NCBI GenBank assembly: GCA_911728435.2
Contig: OU452207.1
Location: 12,070,182-12,134,181, forward strand
Direction of reading: 5' to 3'
From: Apoderus coryli
Lineage: Eukaryota; Arthropoda; Insecta; Coleoptera; Attelabidae
DNA length: 64,000 nt
Shown here: piece after piece, positions 5,721 to 60,020 of the stretch
How positions within the stretch are numbered: the first letter of the stretch is position 1
Layout of the letters: each line of letters opens with the position of its first letter
Notes under the pieces: model-generated
What the model was told of the DNA's origin: nothing
Databases searched by the model: none
The model's input: only the letters and a program-made list of their open reading frames with translations
Translations under genes and position numbers: made by a program

Positions 5721-5724
5721 ATGA

Positions 5725-28980: not shown

Positions 28981-29021
28981 GTCATACATGTTTCGAGGGT
29001 CATATCCTCATCATCAGTGAC
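28981..29021 (-). ncRNA. Hammerhead ribozyme, intact core
   Basis: On the minus strand: GTCA, then the core CTGATGA, one U, stem II GAGG with CCTC around a 7-base loop, GAAAC, loop AT, GT, A at the cleavage position, then TGAC. Stem I (GTCA with TGAC) is perfect Watson-Crick pairing and differs from the GCCA/TGGC stem of the copy at 59381, so the pairing is supported by compensatory change. Stem III is the two-base-pair form known from Penelope-like elements, which is expected to be most active as a dimer. Confidence 0.82.
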
Positions 29022-29492
29022 ATTATAAAATCCGTTAAGACATTGTAGAACACATATGTTCTGAAAATAATTGATTATAAGAAAGGCTTGTTAATTATAG
29101 TCTGTAACGAGTCTTGTGAAAAAATATTTAAAGTTTATACATAAAAAATTGACTAGAAATAAACATTAAATTATGGGCTTCATTGAGCCAAACAATTTGA
29201 TTTTCTTCTTGTTAATCATTCTAATGGAATGGAAAACTTTAAATTTCTGGAAAATGTGATCAACCTAACAAACTCGTGGTTATGTTGTGATGAATTTAAG
29301 GTTATGAACATGGTATCAAAATCAGCATTTACAAATAGGTTATAATCCTAGATAATACAGTTACAGTTACTATCTTTAAATATGTTTTCACAAGTGGTAA
29401 GACTCTTTACAGACTATAATTAACAAGCCTTTCTTATAATAAATTATTTTCAGAACATATGTGTTCTACAATGTCTTAACGGATTTTATAAT

Positions 29493-29531
29493 GTCACTGA
29501 TGATGAGGATATGACCCTCGAACTATGACTG
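29493..29531 (+). ncRNA. Degenerate hammerhead copy in the opposite arm
   Basis: The right arm has GTCA, CTGATGA, stem II GAGG/CCTC, but the following core is GAAC instead of GAAAC and two or three bases of stem III are lost (CTCGAACTATGACTGAC). Loss of the conserved adenosines should abolish cleavage. Its partner arm at 28981-29021 is intact. Confidence 0.7.
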
Positions 29532-29554
29532 ACTTTCGATATTGAACAATATAT

Positions 29555-32500
29555 CGATGGCTTAGGCGCAATACGTCGTATCCCCTTAATAGTAAATTTT
29601 ACAGGAGACACAAAATACTTCACAGTTACAATATTTAAGGCATGTTTGATATTTTCTTCGGTCAATTATAACCATACTATAATCAGAAAAAGTATTTTAA
29701 GTGCATTTTTATATTATCAGCACTATTTCAAAAATTATGTGTGATACGTCCTATTGCGTTTTCCTGTTTTGTGGGTTACGCCGTATTTATATTTTATTTA
29801 TTATACGGTTAGCATAAGAAATCCAAATGTGTGGGTTACGTCTAATTGTATGAACCAGATAAATCTGAAATTAAACATTTTTTTTTTATAAAAGTATCAA
29901 AAATATTTATTTTAAACAACTTATTTCTTTGGAACACTGAAATTAAGTTAGGTACATGTGTTTCTTAAAACTAAAGGCAGAACATAAGTGAACACAGATT
30001 TTTCTAGTACGTTTAAACAAAAAGATTTAATTATTGTTCTTTGTTTTCTTTTTTTCTTTAAGGCTAGTTTTTGACTTGACCGTTCTCTTCTTGACTGACG
30101 TTTTTTCGATTCCCGTTATAGGTTTTGGGTTTGTAGCTTTCTTCTTTGTATCAGTTTCATTGTTTACTATTTCTTGTTTATTTTCCAATTCGTCATATAG
30201 TTCTGTGTTTGGCTTAGCCTTTTTATTTCCTTGATTCATATCTTCCGAATCATACGGTAAGTTTAAGTAAAAATCCTTCACTTCTTTAGACAATACTGAA
30301 GTAAGTTCTTGTAAGTCCTTAAATTTTTTCTTTGTAATTTTAATTCGGTTGTCGTATAATCGGCGACGAGGCTGGTTACTTAAATTAATTGTAAAATATT
30401 TTTCCATTCGGACAATACTTAAAAGTTTTTACATCAACTACTTTAGCGTCATTTACGTTTCGTCCAGGTCGTATGGATTGGTATGTATAAAGATTTTTAT
30501 CATCATATTTCATAAAAAAATCATGTGAGACATAATGGACATCCAAAGGAAAAGGCTTATGCCTCGCTTCTTTTATTGCTAAAGAGTACTGGCTAGGCAA
30601 ATGAATTTCTCTGTTCTTTAGCTTTCGTTCGATTAGTGCATGAGTAGAGTCACACTCCATTTGAGTGTGACCCTTTTCCAAGTATTTCTGAAATACCGTT
30701 ATACCAGTTTGCACTGAAAAGGACAACAACGCATTTGACAATATCACATTCTTATTTTGATACCCGCAATTATCGGAATAAATGTTTATTGATCTTGGCT
30801 CTTCCAGACAATGCTTTCTCAGATAGTCCATTGTACAACTTGTGAACACTGATGATACTAGCTCTCCTTCACTCTCACTCCAGCAGTAATTATCAGATTT
30901 ATGTGTCTCAACATTATATATCGTAAAGTTATGAAACTGAAGCTTGCTTTTAAAGTATAATTTACTAGCAAACAATTTAGGGCATAATTGAACAGCTTGC
31001 ACGTCCATCGTCAGGGTATAACATTTTTTTTCTAATGCATCAGCCTTGTCCTTTTCTTTCTCTGCTCTCGCTCTATTTTTATCAATCACATGTTTCTTGT
31101 ATGACGCTTCTTCAACCTGTCCGACTTTATATGAACAACAAATATCGCATTGATCCTTTTTAGGTAGATGTATTCCTATATTATTTTCTTCTAGAATTTT
31201 ACTGAACGAAAATATTGATAACGGCTGTTCATTACTTTTAGTGCATTCCTCCTTGTAAACATTATAGATCTCGGTTTTATTACGAAAACGTTCTTCAAGG
31301 TAAAGTTTATTCGAATATTTTCGGCAATAATGCGATGGGAGTTGTGGAAAACGGTTAATGACTTCTCTTGCAAATTGAACTCTCTTAGCATCATCGGCTT
31401 GTTTTTTTGTTTTGTTTTTTTGATATTTCGGCAAAGGCATTCCATGCTGCATAGGTTCAATGAGCCAGTTTCTTATCATCCTTTCACCAATTCCAAGTGT
31501 AGACATAAACATCCGCTTGCAAACTGCCAATTTATTGGCATCAAGCTGCAAACTATAAAGAATAGTGCCTGTTCGCCTCGACGCACTATGAGCGTAGGAT
31601 CTTTTTTTCTCGGTATACTGAGCCAAACTTCTGACATACATTTTCTTTTGTTCCCACGTCAAAGTCCAAAATCTAGTGAATATTTCCTGCCTTTCAATTT
31701 CCGAAAATTGTTTACATTTATGATTACTGCTACACATACACGGAGTACCCACCTTGCGAGCAGGTCTTTTAATATCGTGTTTTATATCTCCTGTCTTGCT
31801 TCTAGTGTAGCCTATGTACTGTTCTCCACTCATTCTCAGTTTTTTATTTTTGTTTCTATCCCATTCATTTTGGTCTGCAATCTTCCTTCTTTTATCATTG
31901 CCACCACTTTTTTCCTTAGTGTAATTATCAAGCACGGTTTCATGGGCGTTGTCCACATTATCTGGTCCTAAACTTTCCATTAATTCGTGATTTGGAGGAA
32001 TTTCTTCTGCAGGTTCATTTATGAAGTTAGTAGACTTTTCTGATTCTAAACCATCAAATAATCCATTCTTTGGAGGAATTTCTGTTATGAGTTCGTTGTC
32101 GAAATGAATAGACTTTCCTGGCTCTAAAATTTCCAATAAATCACAATTTAGAGGATTTTCTTCTGTAATTTCGTCGTGGAAGTGAATAGACTCTCCTGGA
32201 TCAAAATTTACCAATTCGTCGCTTGGAGGAATTGCTTCAATAGCTGTAAGTTTTACTGGCGAAACCAGTGGAACGCTATTAACAAAAACCAAATCTTGAC
32301 TCTGAGAAAATTCCTTGAAACAATTAACTAATACTGGCTTCTGTGGTGTAAGGATTTCATGTTGCAAGATTCCCTTGTCAGAAATCACAAATTCGTATGA
32401 AGTGTGAGGTTGAAGCTCTGACATACGAACATCGGCCGCAGAATGAGATGAGCTATTGTTATTGGTGGCCAAAGCAGCTCTTAAAATACGAGAAGTTCGA

Positions 32501-33133
32501 GTGGACATCCTGTAACAAGCAAAAAATGAAGTAAACCGGTGAAAATCATATATTTATTTGAACATATAAACTAGCAGCCCTAAACACACTCACACTCCTA
32601 CACATATAATTACGCAGCTTCGTTATTTATAAATGAGGGATACGACGTATTACCTATTAGTGCAATACGTCGTAACCCACAAATTAAAAGTAAGGTTAGG
32701 TTATGGATTAGCATTTCCGTTCAAACAAATAAATCAATAAAAATAGATTAGAAAAGTATAATTCATGATATTTTGATGTATATATGATGAAAATATACTC
32801 TTACCTGCTATATATAACACAAAAAATTTTTAAAATATATATAACTACACTTTTCCGGCGCTTTTTGTAGAGCACTAACAACAGGTCAACGAGTTGGTAG
32901 GGTTACGACACATTGCACTGTAATCTTTTTTGGTGGCTTCCGACCTATTGCGCTTCACTTTTACATCTGCTGGGGATACGATGTTTTGAAATAATCAAAT
33001 AGGAATGTTTTTTTATTATGACGAGGCTTACGATATATTCTAGAGACATGGTTTAATCTGTTAGAATCAAATGGCGCCAAAAACGTAAAAACACATTTTC
33101 TGTGGGTTACGACCTATTGCGCCTAAGCCGTCG
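29555..33133 (-). mobile_element. Near-intact DNA transposon of family T1
   Basis: The ends are inverted repeats CGATGGCTTAGGCGCAATAC (29555) and CGACGGCTTAGGCGCAATAG (complement, ending 33133), continuing as GTCGTA.CCC. The element sits inside the right arm of the inverted repeat at an AT microsatellite, so the pre-insertion sequence is known from the left arm. It leaves two or four duplicated bases (AT or ATAT), which cannot be decided because the AT copy number may vary. Internal copies of CGCAATACGTCGTAACCCA-like words occur near both ends (29745-29790, 32640-32680, 32900-32960, 33105). The length is about 3.58 kb with a single transposase gene. It might belong to Sola (4-bp duplications), but I cannot confirm this. 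Confidence 0.85.
30027..32508 (-). CDS. T1-family transposase (unclassified), one frameshift
   Basis: The main ORF is 707 codons starting at 32508. Residues 1-210 are acidic and carry a repeated EIPPxxELxxxLxPxxSIHF unit. Then comes a basic segment; a Cys-rich site (CMCSSNHKCKQF) followed by SEIERQEIFTRFWTLTWEQK; a helical region with LGIGERMIRNWL (DNA-binding-like); FPQLPSHYCRKYSNKLYLEE; a second Cys site (DQCDICCSYKVG); and candidate catalytic residues in TLTMDVQAVQLCP, NIYSDNCGYQNKN and GHTQMECDSTHALIE. The ORF stops at 30385 after CPNGKIFYN. The minus-strand ORF 30407-30027 (KKFKDLQELTSVLSKEVKDF, Lys-rich end) continues the family pattern in another frame, so a single frameshift near 30395 separates the last ~120 residues. 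The fragment at 3250-3790 confirms that order. Superfamily name uncertain. Confidence 0.75.
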
Positions 33134-33179
33134 ATATATGGTTTACTTGTGGAGCAGACGTCGCGTCGGTTTATTATTT

Positions 33180-33487
33180 CATATACCAAAATTTATCTCA
33201 ATTGGTTAAATCGTTTAGGCGCAATCATGGAAGAATACATACATACACACAGACAGACTTCCATCTGGAAATGGTCTTAATCGTCTCAGGGAACTTCAAG
33301 TTATATCCGTCTTTATCTCAATTTTTTTTGCGTTCACAATAATTTCTCTGTGCGGGAAAGTAAAACTAAACAACCTTATAACAAATTCTAAAAAAAAATA
33401 AATGAACAAATGCAAGGTATTTATTCAAAAATAAAAATTTATTCAGTAAAAAGTTTCACAGCTTCCATAATAGGGTATTTTAAACAT
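33180..33487. other. No supported gene; retroelement-like tail motif
   Basis: Right after the inverted-repeat element, the stretch 33178-33260 (AATTGGTTAAATCGTTTAGG then ACATACATACACACAGACAG) resembles the 3' tail shared by many insect retroposons. A related phrase is present on the far left side (28825-28870, CTTAAGCGATTTCAACCAAA), which suggests that the whole unit was inserted in, or is flanked by, such a sequence. Nothing coding was found. Confidence 0.4.
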
Positions 33488-35200
33488 TTAAGCGAATGAA
33501 ATAAAATAAAAAATAAACATGACTGAATTTTTACATAAAAGGGTTTTATTCCAACACAAAAGTCTTAGGAAGAGTAAAAAATTTCGTCCTCTTTTTACGT
33601 TTTTTAATCGCACTTTTTGAATAATCTGATTTCTTCTAACTTGGGTCAAATCTGGGTTTGGAGGAAATACAAAAAACTCGTCCTTGGTGCCCTTCCTTCT
33701 AAGGCTATTAATGGTTATTATATTTTTCGAAAATTCTTCAATTTTTCCAATATAAAAACGGTCTCGTTTGTTGGTTTCAAACTTGACGATTACAAAATCA
33801 TTAAGAAAAAATTCCTCTTGGCCAACAGCAACGGTCTTAGTTGTTACAGGTACCATTGATGACTCTCCAATTTCATAATCTCCCATGCTGCCGACATTTT
33901 GTGGGTTCTTAGAATTGTGTAAGTCAGGTAAAGGTGAAGGAGATCTGATTTTTTCGGAAATTCCAAAGTCTGAGTTGTCTTCTGATTTTCCTTGACTTGT
34001 TTTTATATTTTCTGGGAACCTCAACAGGCTTTCTTAACTTTCCCTGGTTTTCATCTAAAATGATAAGGTCGCTACTACTTATGTTCTTGCCTGGTGTAAT
34101 GTTAATTTTCTTTCCTCGTGTTGCGGTTTGGAATGGTCCAGACCTTAATTACAACAGCATCAGTCTAAGCTTTTTGAGGGCTTCTTTAAAAAGTTTTGGG
34201 AAGCACACCTCTGTTATTGATTTTCCACTTTTCCAACATTTTTCGCCAAGACGCCTTTAGCGGTCGCAAGTAGGCCACGTCTCAAGGCTGCAGTATATGT
34301 GTAGAGTTAGGCGGAAGTAGAGCAAATCTAATATTAAAATTTTCGCAATCCCTTATTACACACACTTATGGTAACCTGACTGCTTAAATTGTCTCCGATG
34401 AGCAGCTTATCACCATCTAAATTTCTAAAATATGGCAACGCAATACTATAAAACCAGTCCATCCAAAATATTTGGGTCCAACCAACCGCTTGGTGTGTGA
34501 TTATATTTTGACTTTTCTAAGCCAGCTTCAGTCCAGCCGTGGTAGGAGTGTTTTGTCTTGTAGACAACATATGGAGGCAAAAGGGTGCCATTACAGCTAT
34601 CGACAACATTACTGTTGTGTTCGTTTTTGAACTATCTATAGCTCTAAAAGCATGTTTGCTTCCTTTTTTTGTAACAACTTTTGTTGTCCTCGGATCATCT
34701 ACAAAGTTGGTTTCGTCGTAGTAAACTATATGCAAAGCCGGAATATCTCTAATTACAGTTTCTAAATTGTCAAAATATCGTTTAACTGCTTTATAACTTA
34801 TATCAGCTCTTACACGTTTTGTATTTCCAGCAAGTTTGGATTTGTTTTCATGAACCATAAAAACCTATCACTTCCCGGTAAGTTATCGCGAAATCTGTTC
34901 TCATTGAGGCCACGTTTATTTAAATACTGCTGCACAATATATCTGATATCAATTGGTTTTAGAGGAAATCCCCATTCTGCACACAATTGAAGTGCTTCAA
35001 CTAATTTTCTCTCACTTTTTTCGTCTAGTGCTTGCGGCTTTCCATACTTGAGGGAAACGGTGCCGTGAACGTGATTGTTGAGTGTCGTATACGGTACACC
35101 GTATTGATAAGTCTTTCCGCTTCACCGCCGCTACTGCTCTTTGTAAATAAATTTAATCGTAGTTTTTATTCCCATGTGGCCCAATTTTCTTTTTGTAATG
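33488..35200 (-). pseudogene. Pogo-like transposase D, nearly full-length but frameshifted
   Basis: Read on the minus strand: RAVAAVKRKDLSI and PYTTLNNHVHGTVSLKYGKP in a shifted frame (pipsqueak HTH, 35160-35040), LDEKSERKLVEALQLCAEWG, FPLKPIDIRYIVQQYL and RFRDNLPGSDRFLWFMK (CENP-B-type HTH, 35025-34860), ALHIVYYDETNFVDDPRTTK (first catalytic Asp, 34745-34690), PYFRNLDGDKLLIGDNLSSQ (second Asp, about 34445-34390), then a tail with FFLNDFVIVKFETNKRDRFY and IGKIEEFSKNI (tudor-like, 33815-33730) ending in a basic stretch. The third catalytic region near 34300-34200 is damaged. At least four frameshifts are present. Terminal repeats were not located convincingly. Confidence 0.8.
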
Positions 35201-35299
35201 ACGGGGCATCTAGAACAAAAAAAAGCAGAAGCATTTTACAGTTGTTTCCCGCACAGTTGTCAGTAATTAGGTTAAGTTTGGTTTGATCGACTTTTCCCC

Positions 35300-35988
35300 A
35301 CTTGTTAATGTTTTTTTAGTCTTAAGGTCATAATTTTTGTATTAATGATTTTTATTTATTATTTTTTGTAGATTTCGACTATCCCACTTAATAATCTAAT
35401 AAACAACATGCCCTAAAAATGTACAATACTTACCACGTCTTGTGTATAAACAAACGTTTTCACAAAATCTCAAAAATGCTAAGAACTCGTGATAAACTAT
35501 AATAATTTATAGCTAAGCTTTAAAATATCACCAAACTACACTCAAACTCACTTGTGTCATATCTGCTCCAAATATGACCTAGTACTGTCCTATGCGACAC
35601 AGATTTTTGGTTATGCGCATTAAAATGTTTTGTTTTGACACGTGGATCGACTTTACCCCAGGTGACGGTATACTTGTTTAGAACTGGAAAGGATAGCTGT
35701 CAGATTATATACGTTAAATTTTGTTTTGTAGTAAAATAGTATATTATTTAACGAGCGTATAATATAGCCATTATACGCGAGTCAAATACTATACTTTATC
35801 TACGACTTTTCATTTCGACAATAAATTTTAAATTCCCAAAAAATATTCATTTGCAAATATGTAGAAATTTTAAAATAATTATTAGTAAATTAACAAATCG
35901 TATGATATTTTAAATGTAACAAGTCTTATTTATGTAGAAAATTAATTGTAAGCTCACGACGATTATTAAAATTTATGGTGACAGGTAT
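35300..35988. other. No supported gene; possible pogo end
   Basis: AT-rich spacer. Near 35283-35300 and 35648-35660 the phrases CGACTTTTCCCCA and CGACTTTACCCCA resemble pogo-type ends (complement of GGGG.AAAGTCG) and could mark the right end of element D, but no matching left end was found. Confidence 0.35.
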
Positions 35989-36307
35989 TGTTGTAGAATG
36001 TATATTAACATCAGTGCTTTTATTGGTAATTGTAAAGTTGTGGACGCTATCAAAACACGTAGATGGACATTGATTTGCTTTCGAAATACTAATAGAATTT
36101 GGATTGATTTTGTTGAAATGTGTTTTATTTGAAATGGGTGATTTCTACCTATTACAAGAAGAAGACTTTTTATTCTAACCTCATTTTATATTGGCTCTAT
36201 GTACAATGTGCTTATATTCTTGCATCCGTTCATTCCTTTATGTATTAGTAATAAAACTAGTGTACTTAATTTTTTATTAAGGGTGTTATTTAATAAACCA
36301 ACTTTCA

Positions 36308-36339
<32 letters not shown>

Positions 36340-36346
36340 AACAACA
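35989..36346 (+). mobile_element. 5' LTR of a second Ty1/copia element (B)
   Basis: Boundaries are inferred from the terminal inverted words TGTTGT (35989) and ACAACA (ending 36346) and from the primer-binding site that begins on the next base. The 358-bp segment contains a (TA)n run at 36309-36331 that could serve as, or mask, a TATA element. No 3' LTR copy was seen within the window, so the element is truncated to its right. Confidence 0.65.
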
Positions 36347-36364
36347 GGTTATGGTAGCCCAGAT
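36347..36364 (+). promoter_or_regulatory. Primer-binding site, half initiator tRNA-Met type
   Basis: GGTTATGGTAGCCCAGAT directly follows the LTR. It matches the copia A site (GGTTATGGGCCCAGAT) apart from two central bases. That sequence is complementary to the anticodon region of initiator tRNA-Met, the known primer of Drosophila copia, where a tRNA half primes synthesis. Confidence 0.7.
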
Positions 36365-36422
36365 ATTGCAGTTTACTTGAAAAGTTGGTTTAAGTGCAAT
36401 TGGTAGCGAACAGTTCTTCATA

Positions 36423-36900
36423 ATGTCGTATCAGTTACCTCCAATAGAAAAACTAAAGGGCCGTGAAAACTACGACACTTGGACATTCGCTGTGCAAGCA
36501 TATCTAGAGCATGAGGAATTATGGGACGCGGTCTTAGGTACAGAGAAAGATGGCAAGAAAATAACTAAGGCAAGATCTAAAATAATACTGCTCGTAGATC
36601 CTCTGAATTATGTACACGTTCAGACTAGAACGTCCGCCAAAGAATTGAAAGTTCGGGCGTAGCTGTTACAGCTGCTACTATAAAAACTAAGTTACTTCAA
36701 GACATATCTGTCGTCACGAATGAAACAGATAATAAATCTGGTGCGTTTTATGGTTCTTCCGGTTCTTGTTATAACAAAAGTGTTAACTCGGGTTATAACA
36801 AACACAAACAGACATCGAAACAAACAAATAGTGCAAATAATAATAAAGACTAATTTAAAAAAAAGTTTTGGTGAAGTAGAAAAACGTGTTTTTAATTATT
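36423..36900 (+). pseudogene. Copia B gag N-terminus
   Basis: The ORF opens 59 bases after the primer site with MSYQLPPIEKLKGRENYDTW, TFAVQAYLEHEELWDAVLG and EKDGKKITKARSKIILLVDP. This is the standard start of copia gag (L.G.NY..W......L....LW..V). The frame ends at 36662 and some further gag-like sequence follows in another frame (ATIKTKLLQDIS, and Asn/Lys-rich SGYNKHKQTSKQTN, 36665-36850). The zinc knuckle, protease, integrase and RT are missing. Confidence 0.75.
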
Positions 36901-36949
36901 ATATCCTACGCAAAGATTCTTCCATTATTATTATCTATCGACCGTAACA

Positions 36950-37697
36950 CATTTATTCCGGAAACTAGTTTAAACCTTGTTGTAACGTCGGCTATGACAC
37001 ACTTATTTTGTACACTTTCTATTTCAGTTGATTTGAAAATTGGAAATGTAGTCGAATAATATCTATATCAGAAATTAATAATAATAGTACCAAAGTCTGG
37101 GATGTTCAGATTTTACTACTTCTTTAGTGCCTGAAATGTGAAATCTGTTATCATCTCGGTTTTCACGAATGTGGCAACTACCTGTGTGTTGTACAGTCGG
37201 GTCTTCAATTACGTGCAAATATCACAAATCATACAGATAGTTAATGCATTTATAACATCCGGTCGGTGATTCGTTTTTGATGTTTGCATGTTATGAAGAC
37301 TCGCCTTTTGGATTTGATTCGTCAGAATAATAGCAAATTTCTCTTTGTAGAAACTTGGCATGTGCATGCATGTTTTTATAGCTTGCTGAATTTGTAGGTA
37401 AAGCATCTCATTCATTGTAGTCCTATACTTAGTATATACTTAGTTTATAATTCTTTAGCAGGGTACGTAATTCACATAGGTGTTTGCAGTAACTATTATA
37501 GTACCCAACCCTAGTAGGTATGTCGGTTGGCTACCAAAAAGTGTGGTGATAGTATTTGATATATTACCCTTAAAAATTTCTCAATTATCCGTATGCAAAA
37601 TTAGAGGGTCATTTTTTATTATGTCGTAACACATACTCTGTGTATGTCAAAAGATATTTCGTGAAAATAATCCGAAAAAGAACGATATAGGGTGATA
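36950..37697. other. No supported gene
   Basis: This is the AT-rich interval between the copia B fragment and the left end of the Harbinger element. A minus-strand frame at 37415-37209 has no recognisable domain. Confidence 0.4.
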
Positions 37698-37993
37698 TTA
37701 GCTTCGTTCGCGGCCACGATTCTGAATTGATTCTGAACTGAACCATGACGTCACAGAACTGGTTTTAAAGCGCAGGCGCGGTTCGAAATGCGTTCATAAC
37801 TGTTCTCACCGCGAACGCAAAATAGAATCGCTGGATTATTTTACTTTTACGTTGTATGTTTGTTGTTGTTGTTGTTGTTTGTTGTTGTCGTGTTATAGTT
37901 TTTAATAAAATTTAGACATTTGAGTTATCAGAGTTATTTTTGTGTTGGACGTGTAATCTGTGTTCAGTCAGTATTTTCGAGGTGTAGGATATT

Positions 37994-40545: not shown

Positions 40546-40680
40546 TCGCTTTTAATTTGTTTGTACCTATGTTACTTACACTTTCATGTTTTTTGTTGTA
40601 GATATAGTTTTTGTATTTTGACGTACTGCAATTGTTTTGTACAAAACGTAGTTAATAAAGATTATTATTATTATTATTAT
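38951..40680 (+). mobile_element. LINE-B: 5'-truncated Jockey-type LINE
   Basis: The insertion begins within ORF2 at the Harbinger palindrome and ends with a 3' UTR and an (ATT)n tail at about 40664-40681. Comparison with the other palindrome arm shows the uninterrupted site (CCTTATTAAAATGTGAC). The target duplication is therefore a few bases of TTAA overlapping the tail. Confidence 0.88.
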
Positions 40681-47734: not shown

Positions 47735-47738
47735 TTAA

Positions 47739-49444: not shown

Positions 49445-52223
49445 CAATTCAACCCAACATTTTAAAAATTCGATTTTTCATTTGAATGTACAAAGTTTGT
49501 CTAATAAGCTAGCAGATTTGGATGCGTTTTTAACGGACAATCCTTTTGAGATTCTCTGTATATCAGAACATTGGCTTGACAGTGATAAACTAAATAATGT
49601 TAGAATCCCAAATTATTCGTTGGTTTCTTCATATTGCAGAAGATCTACAAAGATGCATGGGGGTGTTGCAATGTATGTGCGCGATAATACTAAAATGCGT
49701 AGTGTCGATATTGGCGTTTTCTGTAATGCTTTTGATTTGGAAATATGTGCTGGGGTCCTCGAAAACACAAACTGCGTTGTTCTTAGTTTGTATAGATCGA
49801 GCAGTACAGGAAATATGCAAAAATTTTTTGATTATATGTTGGATCTGATTGATTACTTGTTCTATAGATTTAAGTTTATCATTATTGCAGGTGATTTTAA
49901 CCTAGATTTAGAATCACAAAGCGTATGGTCTGTTAAGTTATCTAATATGTTTCAGACTTATGGTCTTAGGCACCTGATTCGTGAACCCACGAGAATTACG
50001 GCGGCCACCAGTTCGTGTTTGGATAATATTGTTACGAATATCGTGGTGGACGGCCGGGTCGCGGGGGTTTGCGAGCCACTTGTGTCTGACCATTGTGGAA
50101 TTTATGTGTTATTTGATTTGTATAAAATTAGTAAAAATGTTTTTTGTAAAAAAAGGTTTGTAAATAATATAAATTTAGCAAAATTTGGAAATGCAATTAA
50201 CTGCATAAATTGGGCAAGTGTGACGGCATCCGAATTATCCTCTGATGAATATGCTGAAACTTTGACAAGTATGTTATCGTCAGCTGTGAATCAGTGCTTT
50301 CCTCTTAAAAACGTAAACATCAGAAATACGGGTGTACGGTGGTTTACGAATGAGTTGAGAGCGCTGAGAAATAGTGTAATGCTTAGTAAGCAAACTTTTA
50401 AACAAACATGTGATATATCTGATTGGGAAGACTACTGCCAGAGACGAAACAACTACAAAAAAGCTTTAAAAAAGGCTAAAAAGGCAGCTATTTCGGATTC
50501 AATTGTTGCATCTGAGAATAAATCTAAACGTATCTGGCAGATAGTGAATAACGAGAGACAGAATTCTAAGCGGTCTGGTGCGTCCCCATCTGGGAACGTA
50601 GATGATTTTAATAATCATTTTGCCAACATCTGTGACAAGATAATAAGCACTTTAGCTCTTTCACCCGAGAATCATTTGCACTATCTTAAAAAGCTTGATA
50701 AGCCTGCGTTTTCCTTCTTTATGACACCGGTCATAGAATCTGATGTTCGTGAGGCGGTTTTATCTCTTAAAAATAAACCGTGCCTTGATTATTACGATCT
50801 AAATGCGCCGATGATGAAGGCTGCCCTTGATTCGCTAGAGATACCCCTTACCGTACTCTTCAATAAGTGCATAAACGAAGGTAATTGGCCAAATGTACTG
50901 AAGATTTCCAGAATTACACCTATTCAAAAAAAAGGGGACATCGCTGATATGGAAAATTATAGACCTATCGCTATGGTTCCTGTGATTTCCAAAATATTTG
51001 AAATATTACTGAAGCAGAAGTTACTATCATACTTGACGAATAAGTCAATAATTTGTCCTCAACAATTCGGCTTTCAAAAACAAAGATCGACAACATCGGC
51101 AATTTTAAAATTTGTTGAGTTTGTTGTCGAGGGTTTTGATAAGCGTAAGATAACTCATGCTACATTGTGTGATCTTACCAAAGCATTTGACTGCGTTGAT
51201 AATAATATTTTGATCAGTAAAATGGAATTCTATGGCATTAGAGGTACGCCGCTAAAACTGTTTGCATCATACTTGCTTAATAGAAAGCAGTTAGTTTCTG
51301 TAAATAATGTAAATTCAAGTATAGTTTGTGTTAAGAATGGTGTGCCGCAGGGATCGGTATTAGGACCTATCCTTTTTTTGCTGTACATAAATGATTTAGC
51401 TCTTAATATTGATATATTAGGTAACGGGACCAGCGTTTTGTTTGCCGATGACACGTCATTGTTGACGCGTAGTGCGCGAGATAGAGATGAGTCTTTTAAT
51501 GCGGCGAAAACTTGGTTCAGTGCTAATAAGTTGTGTTTAAATGAGGCCAAAACACAACAAATAGTGTTCGATTCTGATAAATTTGCAATTAGATCAAATC
51601 CGGTTAAGCTGCTTGGGTTGACGCTGGACTCCACACTGAACTGGTCTAATCATGTGTCGGCACTTTGTGCGCGTCTGTCAAGTCAACTTTTTGTCATGAG
51701 GCAGATGCGTTCATTGGTATGCTCTAATGACATCATGAAAACGATTTACTTTGCTCTAATACACAGTCACCTAAATTATGGCGTGGTTTTGTGGGGAAAT
51801 TCGGTGTCATCCCACAGAGCATTTGTATTGCAAAAGGCTGCAGTGAGGATTATTGATGGCGCGGGTCACCGAGATCACTGCAGAGCCTTGTTTCTTAAAT
51901 ACAGATTTTTGCCTCTACCTTGCGTGTACATACTCGAGAACCTTCTTAATGTACATAAAAAAAGGCATGATATTCAAGCTCACTCCGCGTTTCATGCATA
52001 TGGAACTAGACATGCGAGTGAGTTGGTTGCTCCGTTCTCGAGGATTCGTATAACGTAGGACAATAAATTAGATGTAAAGTTATACAATAGGATTAAGCAA
52101 TTGCATCCATTTGTAAATATAGAAGATATGACACTAAAAAAAATTTGTAAATTTTCCAAAGAATTTCTCATAAGTCAGTGTTTCTATAATATTAATGAAT
52201 ATTACATATTTAATTACGATTAG
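49445..52223 (+). CDS. LINE-C ORF2: endonuclease and reverse transcriptase, one premature stop
   Basis: The reading frame is already open at the ORF1 stop and contains HLNVQSLSNKLADLDAFL, CISEHWLDSD, HGGVAMYVRD, IIAGDFNLDL, and SDHCGIYVLF (AP endonuclease, to about 50150); then KKALKKAKKAAISDSIV, RITPIQKKGDIADMENYRPI, QQFGFQKQRSTTSAILKFVE, LCDLTKAFDCVDNNILI, GVPQGSVLGPILFLLYINDL and catalytic LFADDTSLLTR near 51437-51470. A single TAG at 52056-52058 interrupts the C-terminus; the same frame continues with KLDVKLYNRIKQLHPFVNIE to a stop at 52221-52223. Apart from this stop the copy is intact, making it the best-preserved LINE in the window. No ATG is obvious at the ORF2 start. Confidence 0.88.
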
Positions 52224-55135
52224 GTGGGAAAAATTGTTATTTTTAGTTTGAATATTGTTATTTTTAGTGTAATTATTGTTATTTTTAGTTGAATTATTGT
52301 TGTTTCAGTTGAGGTATTTATATAGGTCAGCCATTATGATGCTGAATTTATTATTATGGTAGATAATTAATTATTAGTTTGTAACACATTTTAGTTAATT
52401 TACAAGAAATCCCTTTGGGATTTCCCAGTCGTTTTGTGGTAGTCTTGTCTATGACAAAAGTCATCGAGGGTTATAAAAAAAAACTGAAAATATGGGTTGA
52501 AAACCTAATCACATAAACAAAATTACATTTGAGACACCCTGTATATAAATAAATTTTATGACACCGCTCTAACAAACTAAGAAAACTCAAAAGTTAAATA
52601 AATTAATAAAAAAAAAGTAACCTGTTGCTGAAAATATGGTTTAAAAACCTGATCAAATAAATGGAAACAGTATTGTATACATACACCCTGTATAAAAATG
52701 TATGACCCCATTCTAACTAAAAATACTGTGAAAAAATATATAAAAAAATTCTTATGAAACATTTTTGAGCCATTCTGTGCAATAATTTCATGAAGTCATT
52801 CTAAAAAACTAAAAAATTAAAAAGTTTTTCTGTCTATTACGTTCTACCTTGCCTAAAAATCTTGAAAATAAATATAAACATTTTTGAGTATCCCTTTATC
52901 TAAATTGTAGGCGGTTATTCTGGAAATGTAAAAGTTCTTAATATTTGTACGTTTCACTCTAAAGAATTGCTAAAAAAACGTGCTCTTAACACTAAGGCAA
53001 AAAATTTGGGACACCCTGTAATTCTAGTTATTATTTTATGTTTATAATATATTTGTTTATAAACTGATCTCATATAGTAAATTTGACAGTAAAATTTGAA
53101 TTTTCTCTGTCATAATAATAAATAATTTTTCCTAAAAATGATTTCACCCTGTATAAAAAAATGTATGAAACCATTCTACAAAAAATCAAAAGTTTTCTAA
53201 CTTTTTTGTTTCGCTCTAAAAAATTTAAGCGTTGTAAAACTAATATATTTTTCTGTATGACCCTGTATATGGTTTTTTTAATTTATTCTACACTTAACCA
53301 CAGTATATTTAATATTTACCATGACTTAACGTTTTTGCTACAGCTGATTATTTAAAGAATCAAAAACACTATCGACAGTTTTATTACCTTACACCTCTAG
53401 TTCACATGTTTTTATTTTTTGTATGTTGGTAACATTGACTTTTGTTATCTATCAAGCATTTTGCTTCGTTGACAATTAACTGAAAAAGTTATGTTGAAAA
53501 TGAGTGGCAATTACCCTTATCACATCAGTTCAAGTGAACATAGAAGTGAGGCAAAGCTGTGCTAATTTAATAGACTTTGCCTCGCCTCACTATTGTTCTA
53601 CTCCCTGGTTTTCAAGAATAGCTGCCCAGCTGATCGTTAAGTGAATATTTATTTGAAAAACAACAAACTGTAATAACTTTTATGTTACGACTTATTATTA
53701 CTTATTATTGTATACATTAATATTGGGTGAAATAAACACTACTACTACCACTACTTATAAAAAAATATATAAATGCAAAATTATAAATGGGTTTCTCTCA
53801 TTGACTGAATACTTGGAATACCATGTTAATACCATCCAGTACATTATGTGCTTGATTTCAAAACAATTTCTGCTATTTTGGGTTATTCTTCTTTGATCTA
53901 AAACACGACAAATGAATTTTTAGACTACTTATGTTAAATAAATATGTTAGACAATTATCACCTTTTCAACTCTAGCAGAATATAACTTCAGAAACCTTTA
54001 TTGATTCGAAAGCTATCTTAAACCTTGTTTACCATTTCAAGTCGCTTGCTTCCGATTACATAATATTCATTTTCTTTTGGAAACATTATTAGTTGTACCC
54101 ATGTTTCTATTTCGTGTACGTACCTAATTGATTAGTTAGTATAAAATATTTTATATTATGCTGCTTCTATGATAAAAATACTTACATTTGATCTGGTAAT
54201 GCTTAATTTATGTAGGTGTGTAGGCAGCAACCACTAATAGATGTTTACAATATAAACTAAGATGTTCGGTAGGTAGAAATAATATGTATTAGGTATTAAA
54301 AGAATATAGTTATTGTACAATTACTAATGTTGGAATGATTTTAAGTAAATGTTTATATTTTAATACACATTTTTTAATTAATTAGGTATAATTTATTTTT
54401 TAATTTCAAAATGCCACTTGTCATAATTGTCACTGCAATAATAGTTCATCTATATTGTTGCTTTGTTGTCAGATTGATTTTGACCTAGTATATAAAATAT
54501 GTAATAATATTTATCGGGAAGAATATTTTCGTGAAAGTGAATTGAAAGTAAAGTTTTTGTGAAAGAAATTTGAAAATAAAATTTGGATAATTTAAGTTTG
54601 TGGTTAAATAGGTATTTGAAGTTGTTTTGAGTGTATAAATTGAATTCGGATTGATTACGCTATTGCGGAAACAATTATTAGATTGAATTTTTCAAATAAA
54701 GTGTGGCAACGGCGCTTTTCGTAATTTTCCTTAGATGTTGCCAGATTTTGAATAAATTGAATTGAATGAAATTTCATTAATATTGATTTTTTTCGACAAA
54801 GAAATTATGTTAACAAAATTAAAATAAAATAAACTTGGGGAAATTGAGTTTATGTTTAAATTAGCATATTCACGTGTTTCGGTTGTAAACAGATTTCGGT
54901 TTAATTACGCTATTGCAGAAATAATAAGTACGAGGTGTAGGATAGAGATAATTTGAAAGACATTCTGGCAGCAAAGCATTGTAAGTTGGTATGTTGTTTA
55001 ATCGAGTAGATTCCATAAGAATAACACACAAATCTGTTTTCTTTTCTACTGACTTTACTTTAATGAAAAATGTGACGATTTGGGAACTATTTTAAAAATG
55101 TTTCCCTTCAAAGCAACCTCACCAAAGGTAGCCTA

Positions 55136-55341
55136 TTTTGAAATTAAACGGCAGGAATAGATTATGGAACTAATTTATTCACGAAAAGATTAAATTAATA
55201 TAAGAAAAAATAAACGTGGTTTCATTATTTTTATAACCTAACCTTCTTTTTTTTTATAACTTTTTCTAACAGAGTTGCCAACAATAACATTGTATGATAC
55301 ACTGTTGCCAACTGAGGTGAGTATATTAAATATTCTTAACA
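55136..55341 (-). repeat. Copia A 3' LTR (206 bp)
   Basis: This is the 3' LTR on the element's coding (minus) strand. On that strand it reads TGTTAAGAATATTT ... TTTAATTTCAAAA. It is preceded on the plus strand by the target duplication GCCTA (55131-55135). By eye it is identical to the other LTR over all 206 bases. Confidence 0.93.
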
Positions 55342-55387
55342 CTCCTCCTCGATTTTAATTTTATAGAAAATAAAAAATCGCTATCTA

Positions 55388-58300
55388 TTACAAAATGTTC
55401 AATGAAGTCTTTAAATTCAAAAACTTTTCTTTACACAAAGCTTTAGTAAAAATATCAGCAATATTTGCCTCTGAGGTTACATACTTAATATTTAGTTGTC
55501 TCTCTTGAACTAAATTTTTAAGAAAATGATACTTTATGTCTATATGTTTAGCTCTTTTAGAGTTTTCAAAACTTTTTGTCATTAATATAGCACTCTTATT
55601 ATCTATATTAAGAATACACTGACACTCTATTTTAAGTTCACTTAAAATCCCTTTAATGTTCACAATGTCTTGTGCTGAGGTGGCTGCAGCGATATACTCT
55701 GCTTCTGCAGTTGATAAAGAGACGCAGTTTTGTTTCTTAGAAAACCACGCGACAGGGTTGCCGCAATAAAATATCACACTACCACTAATACTTTTTCTGT
55801 CAATTTTATCTGATGCCCAATCAGCGTCACTATACGCTTCGAGTATTGTGTTTGATTTCTTATATACAAGATGTTCTTCTTTGGTATTTTGTAGATATCT
55901 TAATATACGTTTCGCTGCTTTCCAAGTTTCATCTGTTGGTTTCTCTAAAAATCTGCTCAGATATGAAACAGAGTAGCAAATATCTGGTCTGGTTGTTGTA
56001 GCCAGGTACATTAAACTTCCTATTAGTTGTCTGTAAGGAACATTTACAATATTACTATTATCAATTTTATTTACCTGGAAGTTGGTTTCTAATGGTGTCG
56101 CCACTCCTTTACATTCTTCCATATTAAATACTTGTAGTATTTTATTTATCAAATTTGTTTGTGATAAACACATTTCTGTATCGGTTCTTGTAACTTCTAT
56201 ACCTAGGAAATGCTTTATTTCTCCCATATCTTTTACTTTAAATTCAACCTTTAGTTGATATAGTATTTCATCTATTCTTTGTAAACATCCTGTTATTAAT
56301 AGATCATCAACATATACAACCATCCATAAGTTGTGGTCATAATATAAACATGTGTCATATGTAGATCTCTTCAAATGGTTCTTCAATGCAAATTCATTAA
56401 ATCGTTTGTTCCATGCTTTCGGAGCCTCTTTTAATCCATATAATGATCGATTTAATTTTAATATAGGTGTCTGAGCATTAATTCCTTGTGGACATTTTAT
56501 GTAAATATTAGTTTCTACTTTACCGTTCAAAAAAGCTGTTGGAATGTCAAGTTGTTTTATTTTCCAATTATTTTGTAATGCGTAACTTAAAAGTAGTCTA
56601 ATGGTAGACATTCTCGCTACTGGCGCATACATTGTTTCAAAAGGATTCTCCTTCTTTATCTGAAATCCTCTAGCTACTAGTCTAGCTTTTTTAGTACCGT
56701 CATTTTTTGTTTTAAATATCCATTTTGTATCTATTGCCTGTTTATTTTTTGGTATCGTAGTTTCTTCCCATGTTTGTAACTGTTTATGTGAATCAATTTC
56801 TTTTTTAATAGCATCTCGCCATTGTTCTGTTTTTATAGCATCATCATATGTTTCTGGATCGTTGTTATTATTCGTTAACAAGCAATAAGCTGTGTATATT
56901 TCATAATCTTGTAAATATGTTGGTGTTTTTGTTTTTCTACCTGTTTGTGTTGTTTGTACATTAGTAGGGTTAGCTTCTTCCTCATTAATGTCACTTTCAT
57001 ATTCGATATCGTTTTCGATATTAGTGATGGGCTCTTTTGATTTATTTACTTCTTCGTTTTCAACTGGCTCGATACATGTTTGTTGTATATATTTATTGTC
57101 ACTTTCGTCGAATGTCACATCGCGTGCACAAATCACTTTGTTTTCATTAGAGTTCCATAGCCTGTATCCCGCACCTCCATAACCAACCATTATTAATTTT
57201 TCGGCTCTTGCATCTAGTTTACTTTGTCTTGGTAGAATCACTGACCATGCTTTACTTCCAAATATTCTTAATTTTGATAGGTTATTTTCTCCATACCAAA
57301 TTTTTGAAGGTGGTACTCCGTTATTAGCGGCTGTAGGACTTCGGTTTAGTTCGTATGCTGAACACAATATAGCTTCGCCCCACAATTCTTTAGGTAGGTT
57401 TAATAGTTTTAAACCGCCACGATTTAAATGTCCTAAGCGTCTATGCCAAATGTTTATGTCTGTATTGGCTTGATAGCAGTTTTCGCTATTCGATTTTATA
57501 TATATTTTCAACATGAATAAATTGCTTAATCTTTCACAATTTATCACAAAGTTTGTACCTATTATTTTCGCATTGTCTTTTTCAAAATATACCCTCATGT
57601 TTTTCTTTAATAGTTCACTAACTGATATTAAATTATGATGCATATTTTTTACTATTAACGCTTCAAATTTTATTTTTATGCCGTTACACGTACCGCGTAA
57701 AACACCTTTTTTAGTTGCCACAGTTATTATTATTTTATTTTTTAACGTTTCGATATCTGTTAAGTACTTTTCTAAGTCAGCTGATACTAAATGTTGTGTA
57801 GCGCCGGAATCTAAAATGAACGTATCAATATCGTTTATTTTAGTTAAACAATTCATCGCAACAAAGTTTATTTCACTTTTGTCTTCTTTGGCTGCCTCAT
57901 TAGCTTGTTCGGTATATTCTCGACTTGTGCCCCTTGTTCGACCTCTAGGACTACGACCTCTAAAGTTGCCTCGACCTCTGTAGTTCTTACTAGGACAGTT
58001 TACTGCTATGTGTCCTTCCTTTTTGCATTTATAACATATAATCGTACTGGCACTGAATGAAATATCTGTCGTACTTTCTGCATGACGTTTTGTTTTACCC
58101 GAAATCTTCATTTCTTCATCGAGTAATCTTGATTTAACAAAATCCATTGTTATCTCTGAGTTTATCGTTTCGATTGCTGTTATTACTTGATCATAGGTTT
58201 CATTCAATGTTAGCAATAGGTGGCACACTTTATCTGATTCATCTATTTTACTTCCTGCGTTTTCTAATTCTCTGATTAACGTGTCAAAAGTTAGAAAGTG

Positions 58301-58657
58301 ATCCTCAAGTTTTTCATTCTTCTTTAGCTTCAGCATTAGTAACTTTTTCTTTAAAGTTAACTTCGTAAAGACGCTCTTTCTTTCAAAGACATCTTCTAAC
58401 GCCTTCATCATCTGCTTAGCTGTTTTAGCATCCTTAACTAGGTCTAAATGCTTATCTGTAATACATTGCACTATTACAGATTTTGCTTTTGCATCTTTTT
58501 GCAAGAATTCTTGTATTTTGGAAGGCTCTGTGAAATCACTTTCGTCTTTGTCTAGGGCTTCTTTAATCTGCTTCTCTTCTAGTATTGTTACTACTCGAAA
58601 TTTCCAGTTATTAAAGTTTCCCGAATTTAACTGAGGTAAATTCATTACGCTAGTCAT
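55388..58657 (-). CDS. Copia A gag-pol polyprotein, integrase deleted
   Basis: A 1089-codon ORF starting at 58657. Gag (residues about 1-200; LNSGNFNNWKFRVVTILEE) ends in the zinc knuckle CYKCKKEGHIAVNC (about 207-220). The protease has FILDSGATQHLV (about 278-289). The pre-integrase site is IWHRRLGHLNRGG (about 401-414). The next residues are LKLLNLPKELWGEAI, which in copia lies beyond the integrase catalytic domain: the whole DDE core (normally about 200 residues) is missing, in frame, near 57415. RT follows with WRDAIKKEIDSHKQLQTW, QLDIPTAFLNG and VVYVDDLLITG (about 775-785), then RNase H (AYSDADWASDKIDRKSISGS, STAEAEYIAA). Copia polyproteins are usually near 1400 residues. RT and protease look intact. 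Confidence 0.93.
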   Translation of the reverse strand: MTSVMNLPQLNSGNFNNWKFRVVTILEEKQIKEALDKDESDFTEPSKIQEFLQKDAKAKSVIVQCITDKHLDLVKDAKTAKQMMKALEDVFERKSVFTKLTLKKKLLMLKLKKNEKLEDHFLTFDTLIRELENAGSKIDESDKVCHLLLTLNETYDQVITAIETINSEITMDFVKSRLLDEEMKISGKTKRHAESTTDISFSASTIICYKCKKEGHIAVNCPSKNYRGRGNFRGRSPRGRTRGTSREYTEQANEAAKEDKSEINFVAMNCLTKINDIDTFILDSGATQHLVSADLEKYLTDIETLKNKIIITVATKKGVLRGTCNGIKIKFEALIVKNMHHNLISVSELLKKNMRVYFEKDNAKIIGTNFVINCERLSNLFMLKIYIKSNSENCYQANTDINIWHRRLGHLNRGGLKLLNLPKELWGEAILCSAYELNRSPTAANNGVPPSKIWYGENNLSKLRIFGSKAWSVILPRQSKLDARAEKLIMVGYGGAGYRLWNSNENKVICARDVTFDESDNKYIQQTCIEPVENEEVNKSKEPITNIENDIEYESDINEEEANPTNVQTTQTGRKTKTPTYLQDYEIYTAYCLLTNNNNDPETYDDAIKTEQWRDAIKKEIDSHKQLQTWEETTIPKNKQAIDTKWIFKTKNDGTKKARLVARGFQIKKENPFETMYAPVARMSTIRLLLSYALQNNWKIKQLDIPTAFLNGKVETNIYIKCPQGINAQTPILKLNRSLYGLKEAPKAWNKRFNEFALKNHLKRSTYDTCLYYDHNLWMVVYVDDLLITGCLQRIDEILYQLKVEFKVKDMGEIKHFLGIEVTRTDTEMCLSQTNLINKILQVFNMEECKGVATPLETNFQVNKIDNSNIVNVPYRQLIGSLMYLATTTRPDICYSVSYLSRFLEKPTDETWKAAKRILRYLQNTKEEHLVYKKSNTILEAYSDADWASDKIDRKSISGSVIFYCGNPVAWFSKKQNCVSLSTAEAEYIAAATSAQDIVNIKGILSELKIECQCILNIDNKSAILMTKSFENSKRAKHIDIKYHFLKNLVQERQLNIKYVTSEANIADIFTKALCKEKFLNLKTSLNIL

Positions 58658-58744
58658 GTTGACTTTACTTTTCTCAAAAATTACTTTACTGGGAATTTTA
58701 CTTATTCACTTGGTGCCCTTATTGAACTGCTTGGAATGAGTGAT

Positions 58745-58758
58745 CTGGGCCCATAACC
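58745..58758 (-). promoter_or_regulatory. Copia A primer-binding site (half initiator tRNA-Met)
   Basis: CTGGGCCCATAACC, adjacent to the inner edge of the 5' LTR, equals the anticodon-loop sequence of initiator tRNA-Met, so its complement on the coding strand is the priming site. Drosophila copia is known to use a tRNA-Met half cleaved in the anticodon loop. The site is intact in this copy. Confidence 0.85.
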
Positions 58759-58964
58759 TTTTGAAATTAAACGGCAGGAATAGATTATGGAACTAATTTA
58801 TTCACGAAAAGATTAAATTAATATAAGAAAAAATAAACGTGGTTTCATTATTTTTATAACCTAACCTTCTTTTTTTTTATAACTTTTTCTAACAGAGTTG
58901 CCAACAATAACATTGTATGATACACTGTTGCCAACTGAGGTGAGTATATTAAATATTCTTAACA
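58759..58964 (-). repeat. Copia A 5' LTR (206 bp)
   Basis: This LTR is upstream on the coding strand and would carry the promoter. It is followed on the plus strand by the duplication GCCTA. The leader between the priming site and the polyprotein ATG is only about 87 bases. Confidence 0.93.
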
Positions 58965-59115
58965 GCCTAATGCCTATTCTCAATATTTAACTGTATGTTA
59001 AAACACATGACATATTTTACAATTGTTTTTCTTCGGAGGAGATACGTATGAACTTTTACTCGTTTTCGTTGAAGATTAGAGTGAGTAAGGGCTTACACAA
59101 TTTATATTTCTTGAA

Positions 59116-60020
59116 ATATAATTTAGTTGCTATGCGAACCATAAATGTACAAAGTATGTAAGAATGGTGAATAAAGTCTAAAGTCTAAAAAGTCTAACCA
59201 AATTTTTCCAACAAAATGGTAAGATTCCTACACGTATAATAATATTACATCACATCCTAAATAAGTGATTATTTTACAGATATGTATAGACGTTTAAATA
59301 AAAAATCCATGTAAAAATCTCTGTTAATTCTATATGAAGTATGACCCTCACATCTAACAACATTGTACAAGGTTGCTTAAGCCACTGATGATGGACGTGT
59401 AGTCCGAAACATGTCTGGCAGCTAAAATCAAGAATTTTAACGTATATATATATATAAATCATTTTCTGGAGTAGACGCCTTTTATTCAAATAAAATACAT
59501 ATGTTTTTATAAAAAACTTGAATACGTCTACGATGTTGTTGTTTACTGTCCAGCACTGACATACTATTTTACTTTGAGAACCTTAGTAATTTATAATCAA
59601 ATCCCCTCTACCACCTTCTACTTATATTAAATATTGTTTTTAATAGCAGTAGTAAACAACAAGTGCTTATAAGAGAAAGTAACATAATTTATATAAAATA
59701 AAATAATTTTATTAGACGTGTTGTCGGTTTACTCCAACAAATTTTCGATTTATAGCCAGTTAAAATAGTCCGTTTTTCACAAAATTTATATCAGTTTGTA
59801 CGTAAAGAAAAACATCATTAAATAATAGTTAAGTGCAGTAATCATATTTTATATTTATTCAATAATATTGAAAATCAAAACGTTTACCTTTTTAATTTAT
59901 CTAAAGTAAAAAAAAACAGTGATAAGAACGGCTGCGCTTGTTCGGAGCGGTGTGTGTGTGTGTGCGTGCAGCATTTTCGGGCTGTCCATTTCAATTATAC
60001 AAGGTACGTTCTAAAAGTGT
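59116..60020. other. Penelope terminal-repeat remnant and spacer
   Basis: The stretch 59116-59180 ends with AATAAAGTCTAAAGTC, a LINE-like 3' end. A hammerhead is embedded at 59381. Short (AT)n and (GT)n tracts occur at 59442-59455 and 59950-59967. No protein-coding feature is supported. The last part may be the 5' UTR of LINE-D. Confidence 0.45.
59381..59419 (+). ncRNA. Hammerhead ribozyme, solo copy
   Basis: On the plus strand: GCCA, core CTGATGA, one U, stem II GGAC with GTCC around GTGTA, GAAAC, AT loop, GT, C at the cleavage position and TGGC. Stem I (GCCA with TGGC) and stem II are perfect. The two-base-pair stem III matches the Penelope type. No Penelope coding region flanks it, so it is probably in a solo or truncated terminal repeat. 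Confidence 0.85.

What the first reader, a model, noticed from the sequence alone, without database searches (positions are those of the whole stretch)
28981..59419. Three intact hammerhead ribozymes with compensatory stem changes
Sites at 3892-3937 (minus), 28981-29021 (minus) and 59381-59419 (plus) share CTGATGA, a stem II hairpin, GAAAC and a two-base-pair stem III. Stem I is GCCA/TGGT, GTCA/TGAC and GCCA/TGGC respectively, and stem II is GAAGCT/AGCTTC, GAGG/CCTC and GGAC/GTCC. Pairing is kept while sequence changes, which is strong evidence for structure. Penelope-like elements are known to carry such ribozymes. Here one is 3' of a recognisable Penelope element and two lie in orphan terminal repeats.
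Basis: partly seen in the sequence, partly recalled or inferred. Interest (0 to 1): 0.75.

Follow-up and report, generated by a model that had tools for sequence, protein, structure and literature searches.

The report
Penelope hammerhead ribozymes in mirrored pairs
The three proposed self-cutting RNA motifs belong to a known kind carried by Penelope-type jumping genes; this genome holds thousands of them, and many sit in mirror-image pairs that hint at how these elements insert themselves.

Summary
The three sites are real minimal type I hammerhead motifs: a structural descriptor finds only them in the window, against 1 locus in 400 shuffled windows, and a covariance model trained on copies outside the window finds them at E 1.6e-15 to 1.6e-13. 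Rfam misses them. Stems I and II covary. Self-cleavage is untested. The core pattern matches 8,110 places in this 428 Mb genome.

Site 1 follows a broken Penelope-like element (PLE). Site 2 is one arm of a head-to-head pair: its partner (29489-29537, +) has a damaged core and is split by a DNA transposon, and the pair is flanked by a 12-nt duplication. Sites 1 and 3 have no partner found.

Elsewhere, close copies of one family face outward (19 of 20 neighbours under 5 kb). In 25 of 25 pairs with both ends readable, one end is short and one carries the PLE 'tail'. Best reading: both nicked target strands prime reverse transcription, from two start sites. PLE hammerheads, inverted pseudo-LTRs and the tail are known; the strict short-plus-long rule may be new.

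The parts
3890..3939 (-). Site 1 hammerhead motif (stem I 7 bp, stem II 6 bp, H17 = A)
   Evidence: model R1 61.5 bits, E 1.6e-15
4761..7139 (-). Broken Penelope-like element upstream of site 1: RT-type matches 5722-7139, endonuclease-end matches 4761-5084
   Evidence: tblastn with PLE proteins; RVT_1
28863..28874 (+). Left copy of the 12-nt target-site duplication TCATATACCAAA
28875..29115 (-). Left arm of the site-2 pair as far as it is shared; ends outward in the long (tailed) form with CGCTCCTC..ATGGATTACG
28977..29025 (-). Site 2 hammerhead motif (stems I and II 4 bp, H17 = A)
   Evidence: model R1 58.5 bits, E 1.3e-14
29399..29554 (+). Right arm of the site-2 pair, part before the nested transposon
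   Evidence: inverted repeat 28980-29115 / 29399-29534, 96%; limits by eye
29489..29537 (+). Fourth, damaged hammerhead: GAAACATGTATGAC of site 2 reads GAACTATGAC here
   Evidence: model R1 33.3 bits, E 3.4e-7
29555..33133 (.). DNA transposon nested in the right arm (ends CGAYGGCTTAGGCGCAATA), with a 722-aa ORF matching DUF7869 on the minus strand
   Evidence: (I6); limits by eye
33134..33178 (+). Right arm of the site-2 pair, part after the transposon; ends in the short form
33179..33190 (+). Right copy of the 12-nt target-site duplication
59377..59423 (+). Site 3 hammerhead motif (stems I and II 4 bp, H17 = C)
   Evidence: model R1 54.7 bits, E 1.6e-13

Best explanation
The sites are the minimal hammerheads of Penelope-like retroelements (PLEs), lying near the 3' end of the piece of PLE RNA that is copied into the genome. 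Shown by sequence: core, pairing and covariation, association with PLE coding sequence, outward orientation of close copies, target-site duplications and the two end types. Inferred: a PLE protein nicks both target strands about 12 nt apart. Both freed 3' ends prime reverse transcription of element RNA, one from an inner start (short end) and the other from a start about 40 nt further downstream (long end, the 'tail'). The two cDNAs run inward, stop at independent points and are joined head to head, so one insertion has two outward-facing arms and often two hammerheads. The ribozyme probably acts on RNA and does not set the insertion ends; with so short a stem III it may need a second RNA, paired through ACAUGU, or the PLE protein. 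Cleavage and its use are not shown here.
For: Hammerheads; 8,110 exact matches, reversed control 0. PLE link: site 1, and PLE coding matches between the arms of L013, L014 and L020. Orientation: 19 of 20 same-family neighbours under 5 kb are (-,+) among the first 100 listed site-3-family copies. Duplications: shared strings of 11 nt or more in 20 of 47 site-arm combinations (15 distinct insertions) against 15 of 2,072 mismatched ones. Ends: 19 of 19 readable pairs have one short and one long end, then 6 of 6 further pairs predicted beforehand. Published in vitro: the Anolis PLE protein cleaves and extends both strands and starts at two sites whose spacing is the tail (PMC11167929, main text).
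Against: The published assay saw no difference in start site between top and bottom strands, so it does not predict that the two ends differ. Pairs counted were those with readable ends; eight loci with inverted matches and L031 were not classified, and L021, a larger inverted duplication reaching past the element, has like ends. In L058 the shared string (10 nt) is no longer than many mismatched controls (6-12 nt); L014 and L015 share only 9 and 7 nt exactly. Sites 1 and 3 show no pair. Some inner junctions are near-symmetric palindromes (L058, L051), as self-priming would predict. RNA folding puts the lowest-energy monomer fold of all three sites in a non-hammerhead form that pairs the core with the stem III hexamer, about 4 kcal/mol below the hammerhead without stem III.
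Confidence: 0.72

Rival explanations
1. Self-priming: one cDNA folds back at a palindrome and copies itself, giving a head-to-head inverted repeat, as proposed for rotifer PLEs using an antisense template (PMC3846280).
For: Head-to-head pairs with palindromes at the junction are reported there (passages); here L051, L052 and L058 have palindromic centres by eye.
Against: A copy of the same cDNA should end at the same outer point on both sides, but 25 of 25 readable pairs have unlike ends. Inner ends differ between arms in L014, L053 and L056.
Confidence: 0.13
2. Two separate insertions, or a later inverted duplication, brought the arms together.
For: L021 is an inverted duplication that extends beyond the element.
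Against: One duplication flanks the whole pair, not each arm, and arms of several pairs are 98-100% alike.
Confidence: 0.05
3. The copies are retrozymes: non-autonomous elements that spread as circular RNA cut out by the hammerheads.
For: Many copies are short; animal retrozymes carry type I hammerheads and may use PLE machinery (PMC7229834, passages).
Against: Retrozymes are tandem repeats; no same-strand partner covering the hammerhead at 85% identity or more was found for any of 62 sites, though some sites in L017, L018 and L021 have 73-83% same-strand matches. Stem III is minimal. Of four truncated partner arms, starting about +109, +62, +25 and +3 from C3, none starts at the cleavage site.
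Confidence: 0.05
4. The motif is kept for protein binding or reverse-transcription start, not for cleavage.
For: Hammerhead mutants of the Anolis element did not affect insertion in vitro; the predicted monomer fold is not a hammerhead.
Against: The catalytic core, H17 (C, A or T in 45 of 46 distinct copies) and both stems are kept; but copies were chosen by an exact core pattern, so core conservation is partly built in.
Confidence: 0.2

Closest known systems
Minimal type I hammerheads of Penelope-like elements (Cervera & de la Pena 2014 and Lunse et al. 2017; neither was readable here, known from citing passages in PMC7761336, PMC6155905 and PMC7229834)
   Same: Type I layout, helix III reduced to almost nothing, thousands of dispersed copies, some in PLE pseudo-LTRs, possible action as dimers.
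   Different: Here an extra U follows A9 in the copies studied, and the pairs seen are inverted and outward-facing rather than tandem. Whether the published consensus has the extra U I could not check; the Anolis start codon placed at stem II suggests it does there.
Poseidon element of Anolis carolinensis (PAc), PMC11167929
   Same: Hammerhead upstream of the reverse-transcription starts, two starts separated by the tail, extension of both target strands.
   Different: Tandem organisation at its loci; the hammerhead overlaps the ORF start. No strict pairing of one short and one long end is stated in the text I read.
Endonuclease-containing Penelope elements of the rotifer Adineta vaga, PMC3846280
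   Same: Inverted head-to-head pseudo-LTRs, 8-10 bp duplications, tail optionally on one of the inverted pseudo-LTRs.
   Different: Few copies, explained there by self-priming; no mention of hammerheads (0 occurrences).
Animal retrozymes, PMC7229834
   Same: Type I hammerheads in short non-coding copies.
   Different: Tandem repeats with fuller hammerheads, circular RNAs.

Membership tests
PLE minimal type I hammerhead | Hammerhead core C3UGANGA9, GAA, A15.1-U16.1, H17 | tested here: met
   Met at sites 1-3, with one extra U after A9; the copy at 29489 fails at the GAAA/stem III stretch
PLE minimal type I hammerhead | Stems I and II supported by compensatory change | tested here: met
   one of five measures not above shuffles
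PLE minimal type I hammerhead | Helix III reduced | tested here: met
   ACAUGU only, 2 pairs and a 2-nt loop
PLE minimal type I hammerhead | Lies in or next to a Penelope-like element | tested here: met
   Met for site 1 and for L013, L014, L020; no PLE coding match reported near sites 2 and 3
PLE minimal type I hammerhead | Self-cleavage | not testable with these tools
   No RNA work; predicted lowest-energy monomer folds are not hammerheads
Rfam hammerhead families | Match to a hammerhead covariance model | tested here: not met
   no hammerhead match
PLE insertion with inverted pseudo-LTRs | Inverted arms inside one target-site duplication, tail on one arm | tested here: met
   Site 2; sites 1 and 3: none found
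Animal retrozyme | Head-to-tail tandem repeats with hammerheads | tested here: not met
   0 of 62 sites with a same-strand partner over the hammerhead at >=85% identity

The most novel reading that the evidence does not exclude
Each insertion of these Penelope-like elements is built by two target-primed reverse transcriptions, one on each nicked strand, which must use two different start sites on the RNA about 40 nt apart. A complete insertion is then always a head-to-head pair with one short and one tailed end; the tandem pseudo-LTR picture would be secondary here, and many loci would encode RNA hairpins in which a hammerhead faces its own antisense copy.
Probability: 0.55. Interest if true: 0.75.

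Novelty: new member of a known kind. Interest (0 to 1): 0.55.

Why it matters
How Penelope-like elements insert is open: self-priming was proposed in 2013 and two-strand extension was seen in vitro in 2024. Thousands of ribozyme-tagged copies in one genome give a natural record that can separate the two, because a folded-back cDNA should not end in one short and one tailed terminus. If close copies are nearly always outward-facing, ribozyme dimers within one transcript should be rare in this genome, and transcripts across a pair would form double-stranded RNA.

Tried and rejected
Chance or coding matches: a scan of viral contigs with a core pattern gave two hits, both without hammerhead stems and in coding-like sequence by eye; genome contigs gave none. 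A PLE RT scan of viral contigs and a PDB sequence search gave nothing.

Hammerhead AUG as ORF start: the AUG made by A9-U-G10.1 meets an early in-frame stop in site 1, L004 and L013 (by eye), so I do not claim it as a start codon here.

Tail hairpin: GTGGAG/CTCCAC complementarity is visible, but my covariation test on 22 long ends was negative (141 of 176 against 140.4 shuffled).

Long-end motif: the regular expression used (24 of 62 sites) gave one false positive that I noticed (L013 minus) and missed one true long end (L056 left, ATGGATTGC); both were judged by eye. Self-blast missed several evident inverted pairs and was replaced by direct alignment. A 15-nt shared string at L038 belongs to a spurious arm and was not counted. 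Co-folding favoured dimers slightly but not through the ACAUGU hexamer, so it does not support the dimer model.
Full report
OBSERVATION. A structural descriptor (stems I and II of 4 or more pairs, GAA, stem III of 1-6 pairs closed by A-U, H17, 0 or 1 extra nucleotide after A9) matches only C3 at 3931 (-), 29017 (-) and 59385 (+), and 1 locus in 400 dinucleotide-shuffled windows. All three use one extra U after A9. Stem I is 7, 4 and 4 bp, stem II 6, 4 and 4 bp, H17 is A, A and C. Stem III is ACAUGU: a two-pair hairpin alone, or six pairs between two RNAs. Against an easy fold, the lowest-energy predicted monomer of all three sites pairs part of the core with that hexamer and lies about 4 kcal/mol below the hammerhead drawn without stem III; predicted homodimers do not use the ACAUGU duplex.

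RFAM AND A FAMILY MODEL. Rfam reports no hammerhead in the window at E<=5, at site 2 alone at E<=10 or in 20 relative loci at E<=1. I aligned 33 of 39 distinct copies from elsewhere in the genome and built a model without window sequence. It finds the three sites at E 1.6e-15, 1.3e-14 and 1.6e-13 and a fourth, damaged copy at 29489-29537 (+) at E 3.4e-7. On the alignment 90.5% of cells pair (67.3% shuffled) and the covariation score is 0.670 (0.233 shuffled); slid structures score 0.065-0.219; one measure, pairs with a change on both sides, is not above shuffles. Over 46 distinct copies 328 of 368 pairs hold (239 +/- 6.2 shuffled), and 27 of 46 are fully paired in the inner pairs.

SCALE. The genome holding the window (428 Mb, 129 contigs) has 8,110 exact matches to CTGATGATGN{4,34}GAAACATGT (4,055 per strand as reported; reversed control 0). 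With A, C or G in place of the extra T the count is 263 (control 5). The site-3 30-mer has 442 exact copies, the site-2 family 21 copies within two mismatches.

SURROUNDINGS. Site 1 lies 3' of a broken PLE: matches to PLE proteins at 5722-7139 and 4761-5084, minus, RVT_1 at E 2.3e-10, with what looks by eye like a LINE 3' fragment in between. Named relatives of the RT among 73 hits include proteins of Cyamophila willieti and Coccinella septempunctata, so the host is probably an insect (inference). Site 2 sits in an inverted repeat (28980-29115 / 29399-29534, 96%). The right arm carries the damaged hammerhead, is split by a DNA transposon (about 29555-33133, by eye) and resumes to 33178. The outer flanks share TCATATACCAAA (28863 and 33179): the simplest reading is one insertion later hit by the transposon. 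Sites 1 and 3 lack the long-end motif, and no partner or duplication was found for them.

ORIENTATION. Among the first 100 motif sites listed on contig C1, of any family, neighbours within 3 kb are 14 (-,+), 3 (+,-), 1 (+,+); beyond 10 kb 11, 20, 26 and 15 (-,-). Among the first 100 listed site-3-family copies, neighbours within 5 kb are 19 (-,+) and 1 (+,-), the latter lying between two adjacent pairs (binomial 5.5e-11 against 0.25). Of 62 sites with fetched surroundings (1.7 to 10 kb, window 9 kb each side), 39 have an inverted match to their own segment; none has a same-strand match over the hammerhead at 85% identity or more, though some sites in L017, L018 and L021 have 73-83% ones.

ENDS. 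In a pair the two arms agree outward through the hammerhead and about 80-115 nt beyond its C3. Then one arm stops (short end) while the other runs on through a stretch such as CTCC..ATGGAYTAYTT (long end), matching the published PLE 'tail' in place and length. Nineteen pairs had both ends readable: window site 2, L003 (partner a tail only), L011-L016, two in L017, L020, L022, L023, L026, L039, L042, L048, L051, L052. All 19 have one short and one long end. Exact shared strings are 11-14 nt in 17 of them; L014 and L015 share 9 and 7 nt (12 with one mismatch, by eye). Shared strings of 11 nt or more occur in 20 of 47 site-arm combinations (15 distinct insertions, some counted from both sides) against 15 of 2,072 mismatched combinations. 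I then noted a prediction and fetched six further site-3-family pairs: 6 of 6 have one short and one long end, one of them (L056) recognised by eye because of a substitution; shared strings are 12, 13, 11, 14, 15 and 10 nt against 6-12 in 30 mismatched controls, so the last (L058) is not above control. Total 25 of 25. In the 12 pairs with both offsets printed and arms of about equal internal length the short-to-long offset is 36-41 nt (L011, L012, L014, L016, L017, L020, L022, L053, L054, L056, L057, L058); L015 (34) and L055 (53) have arms of unequal internal length. Not classified: L018, L019, L024, L030, L035, L045, L047 (inverted matches but ends or family unclear) and L031 (short own end, long-type partner end, no duplication found). 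L021 is a larger inverted duplication with like ends and was not counted. Of 39 fetched sites among the first 40 listed on C1, 17 fall in such pairs (my count).

MECHANISM. The Anolis PLE protein cleaves and extends both target strands in vitro and starts reverse transcription at two sites whose spacing is the tail; start sites did not differ between strands there (PMC11167929, main text read). Rotifer Penelope elements show inverted head-to-head pseudo-LTRs with 8-10 bp duplications and a tail optionally on one of them, explained by self-priming on an antisense template (PMC3846280, passages). The present pairs join the two: both target ends prime, one from each start. A single cDNA folding back should leave like ends. 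Inner ends differ between arms in L014, L053 and L056, as expected for two cDNAs; L058 is nearly symmetric, and L051 and L052 have palindromic centres, so a fold-back step in joining, or a minority fold-back route, is not excluded. Why the two primers take different starts is unknown; an asymmetric protein dimer, or the first cDNA masking its own start, are guesses.

ROLE OF THE RIBOZYME. Arms run through the hammerhead uncut, but sites were chosen by having it. Four truncated partner arms start at about +109, +62, +25 and +3 from C3 (L003, L026, L048, L023), none at the cleavage site near +31 to +36. This fits the report that hammerhead mutants did not affect insertion in vitro and that the Anolis ribozyme cut only with protein present. 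Covariation shows that pairing was kept; cleavage is not shown.

WHAT IS KNOWN. Minimal hammerheads in PLE pseudo-LTRs, thousands of dispersed copies and possible dimers are in print (PMC7761336, PMC7229834, PMC6155905, passages). The primary papers of 2014 and 2017 were not read (the first not held; the second seen only as a reference). In the listings and in the papers and passages seen I met no statement that every insertion pairs a short with a long end; the 2013 paper already says the tail is optionally on one of the inverted pseudo-LTRs, and most older PLE papers are not in the library, so this is no claim of priority.

Noticed in passing
window 29555-33133: DNA transposon of about 3.6 kb with ends CGAYGGCTTAGGCGCAATA and a 722-aa ORF (30385-32553, minus) matching DUF7869 (E 1.8e-6); limits by eye.
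   Followed up: partly
window 55136-58964: LTR retrotransposon, Copia-like by eye, with identical 206-nt direct repeats and a 1,105-aa reading frame: probably a recent insertion.
   Followed up: no
window 18809-24046 and 52398-59114: A repeated segment (pieces of 86-98% identity), interrupted in the second copy by the LTR element.
   Followed up: no
window 5110-5767: A LINE-like 3' fragment (by eye) interrupts the Penelope coding region upstream of site 1.
   Followed up: no
L039, L042, L053-L058, long ends: Long ends of the ATGGATTACTTCAG type carry a variable run of A (2 to about 10) before the flank, short ends do not (by eye); slippage at the start of reverse transcription is possible.
   Followed up: no
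G000: Forward and reverse counts are exactly equal (4055/4055, 221/221), unlike (135/128; 11/10); coincidence or a counting effect.
   Followed up: no
L013 3337-3443 (+): A U6 snRNA match (87.9 bits) just outside a hammerhead pair.
   Followed up: no
window 61461-61518 (+): A hairpin resembling mir-3047, below Rfam's gathering score (36.4 against 53 bits).
   Followed up: no
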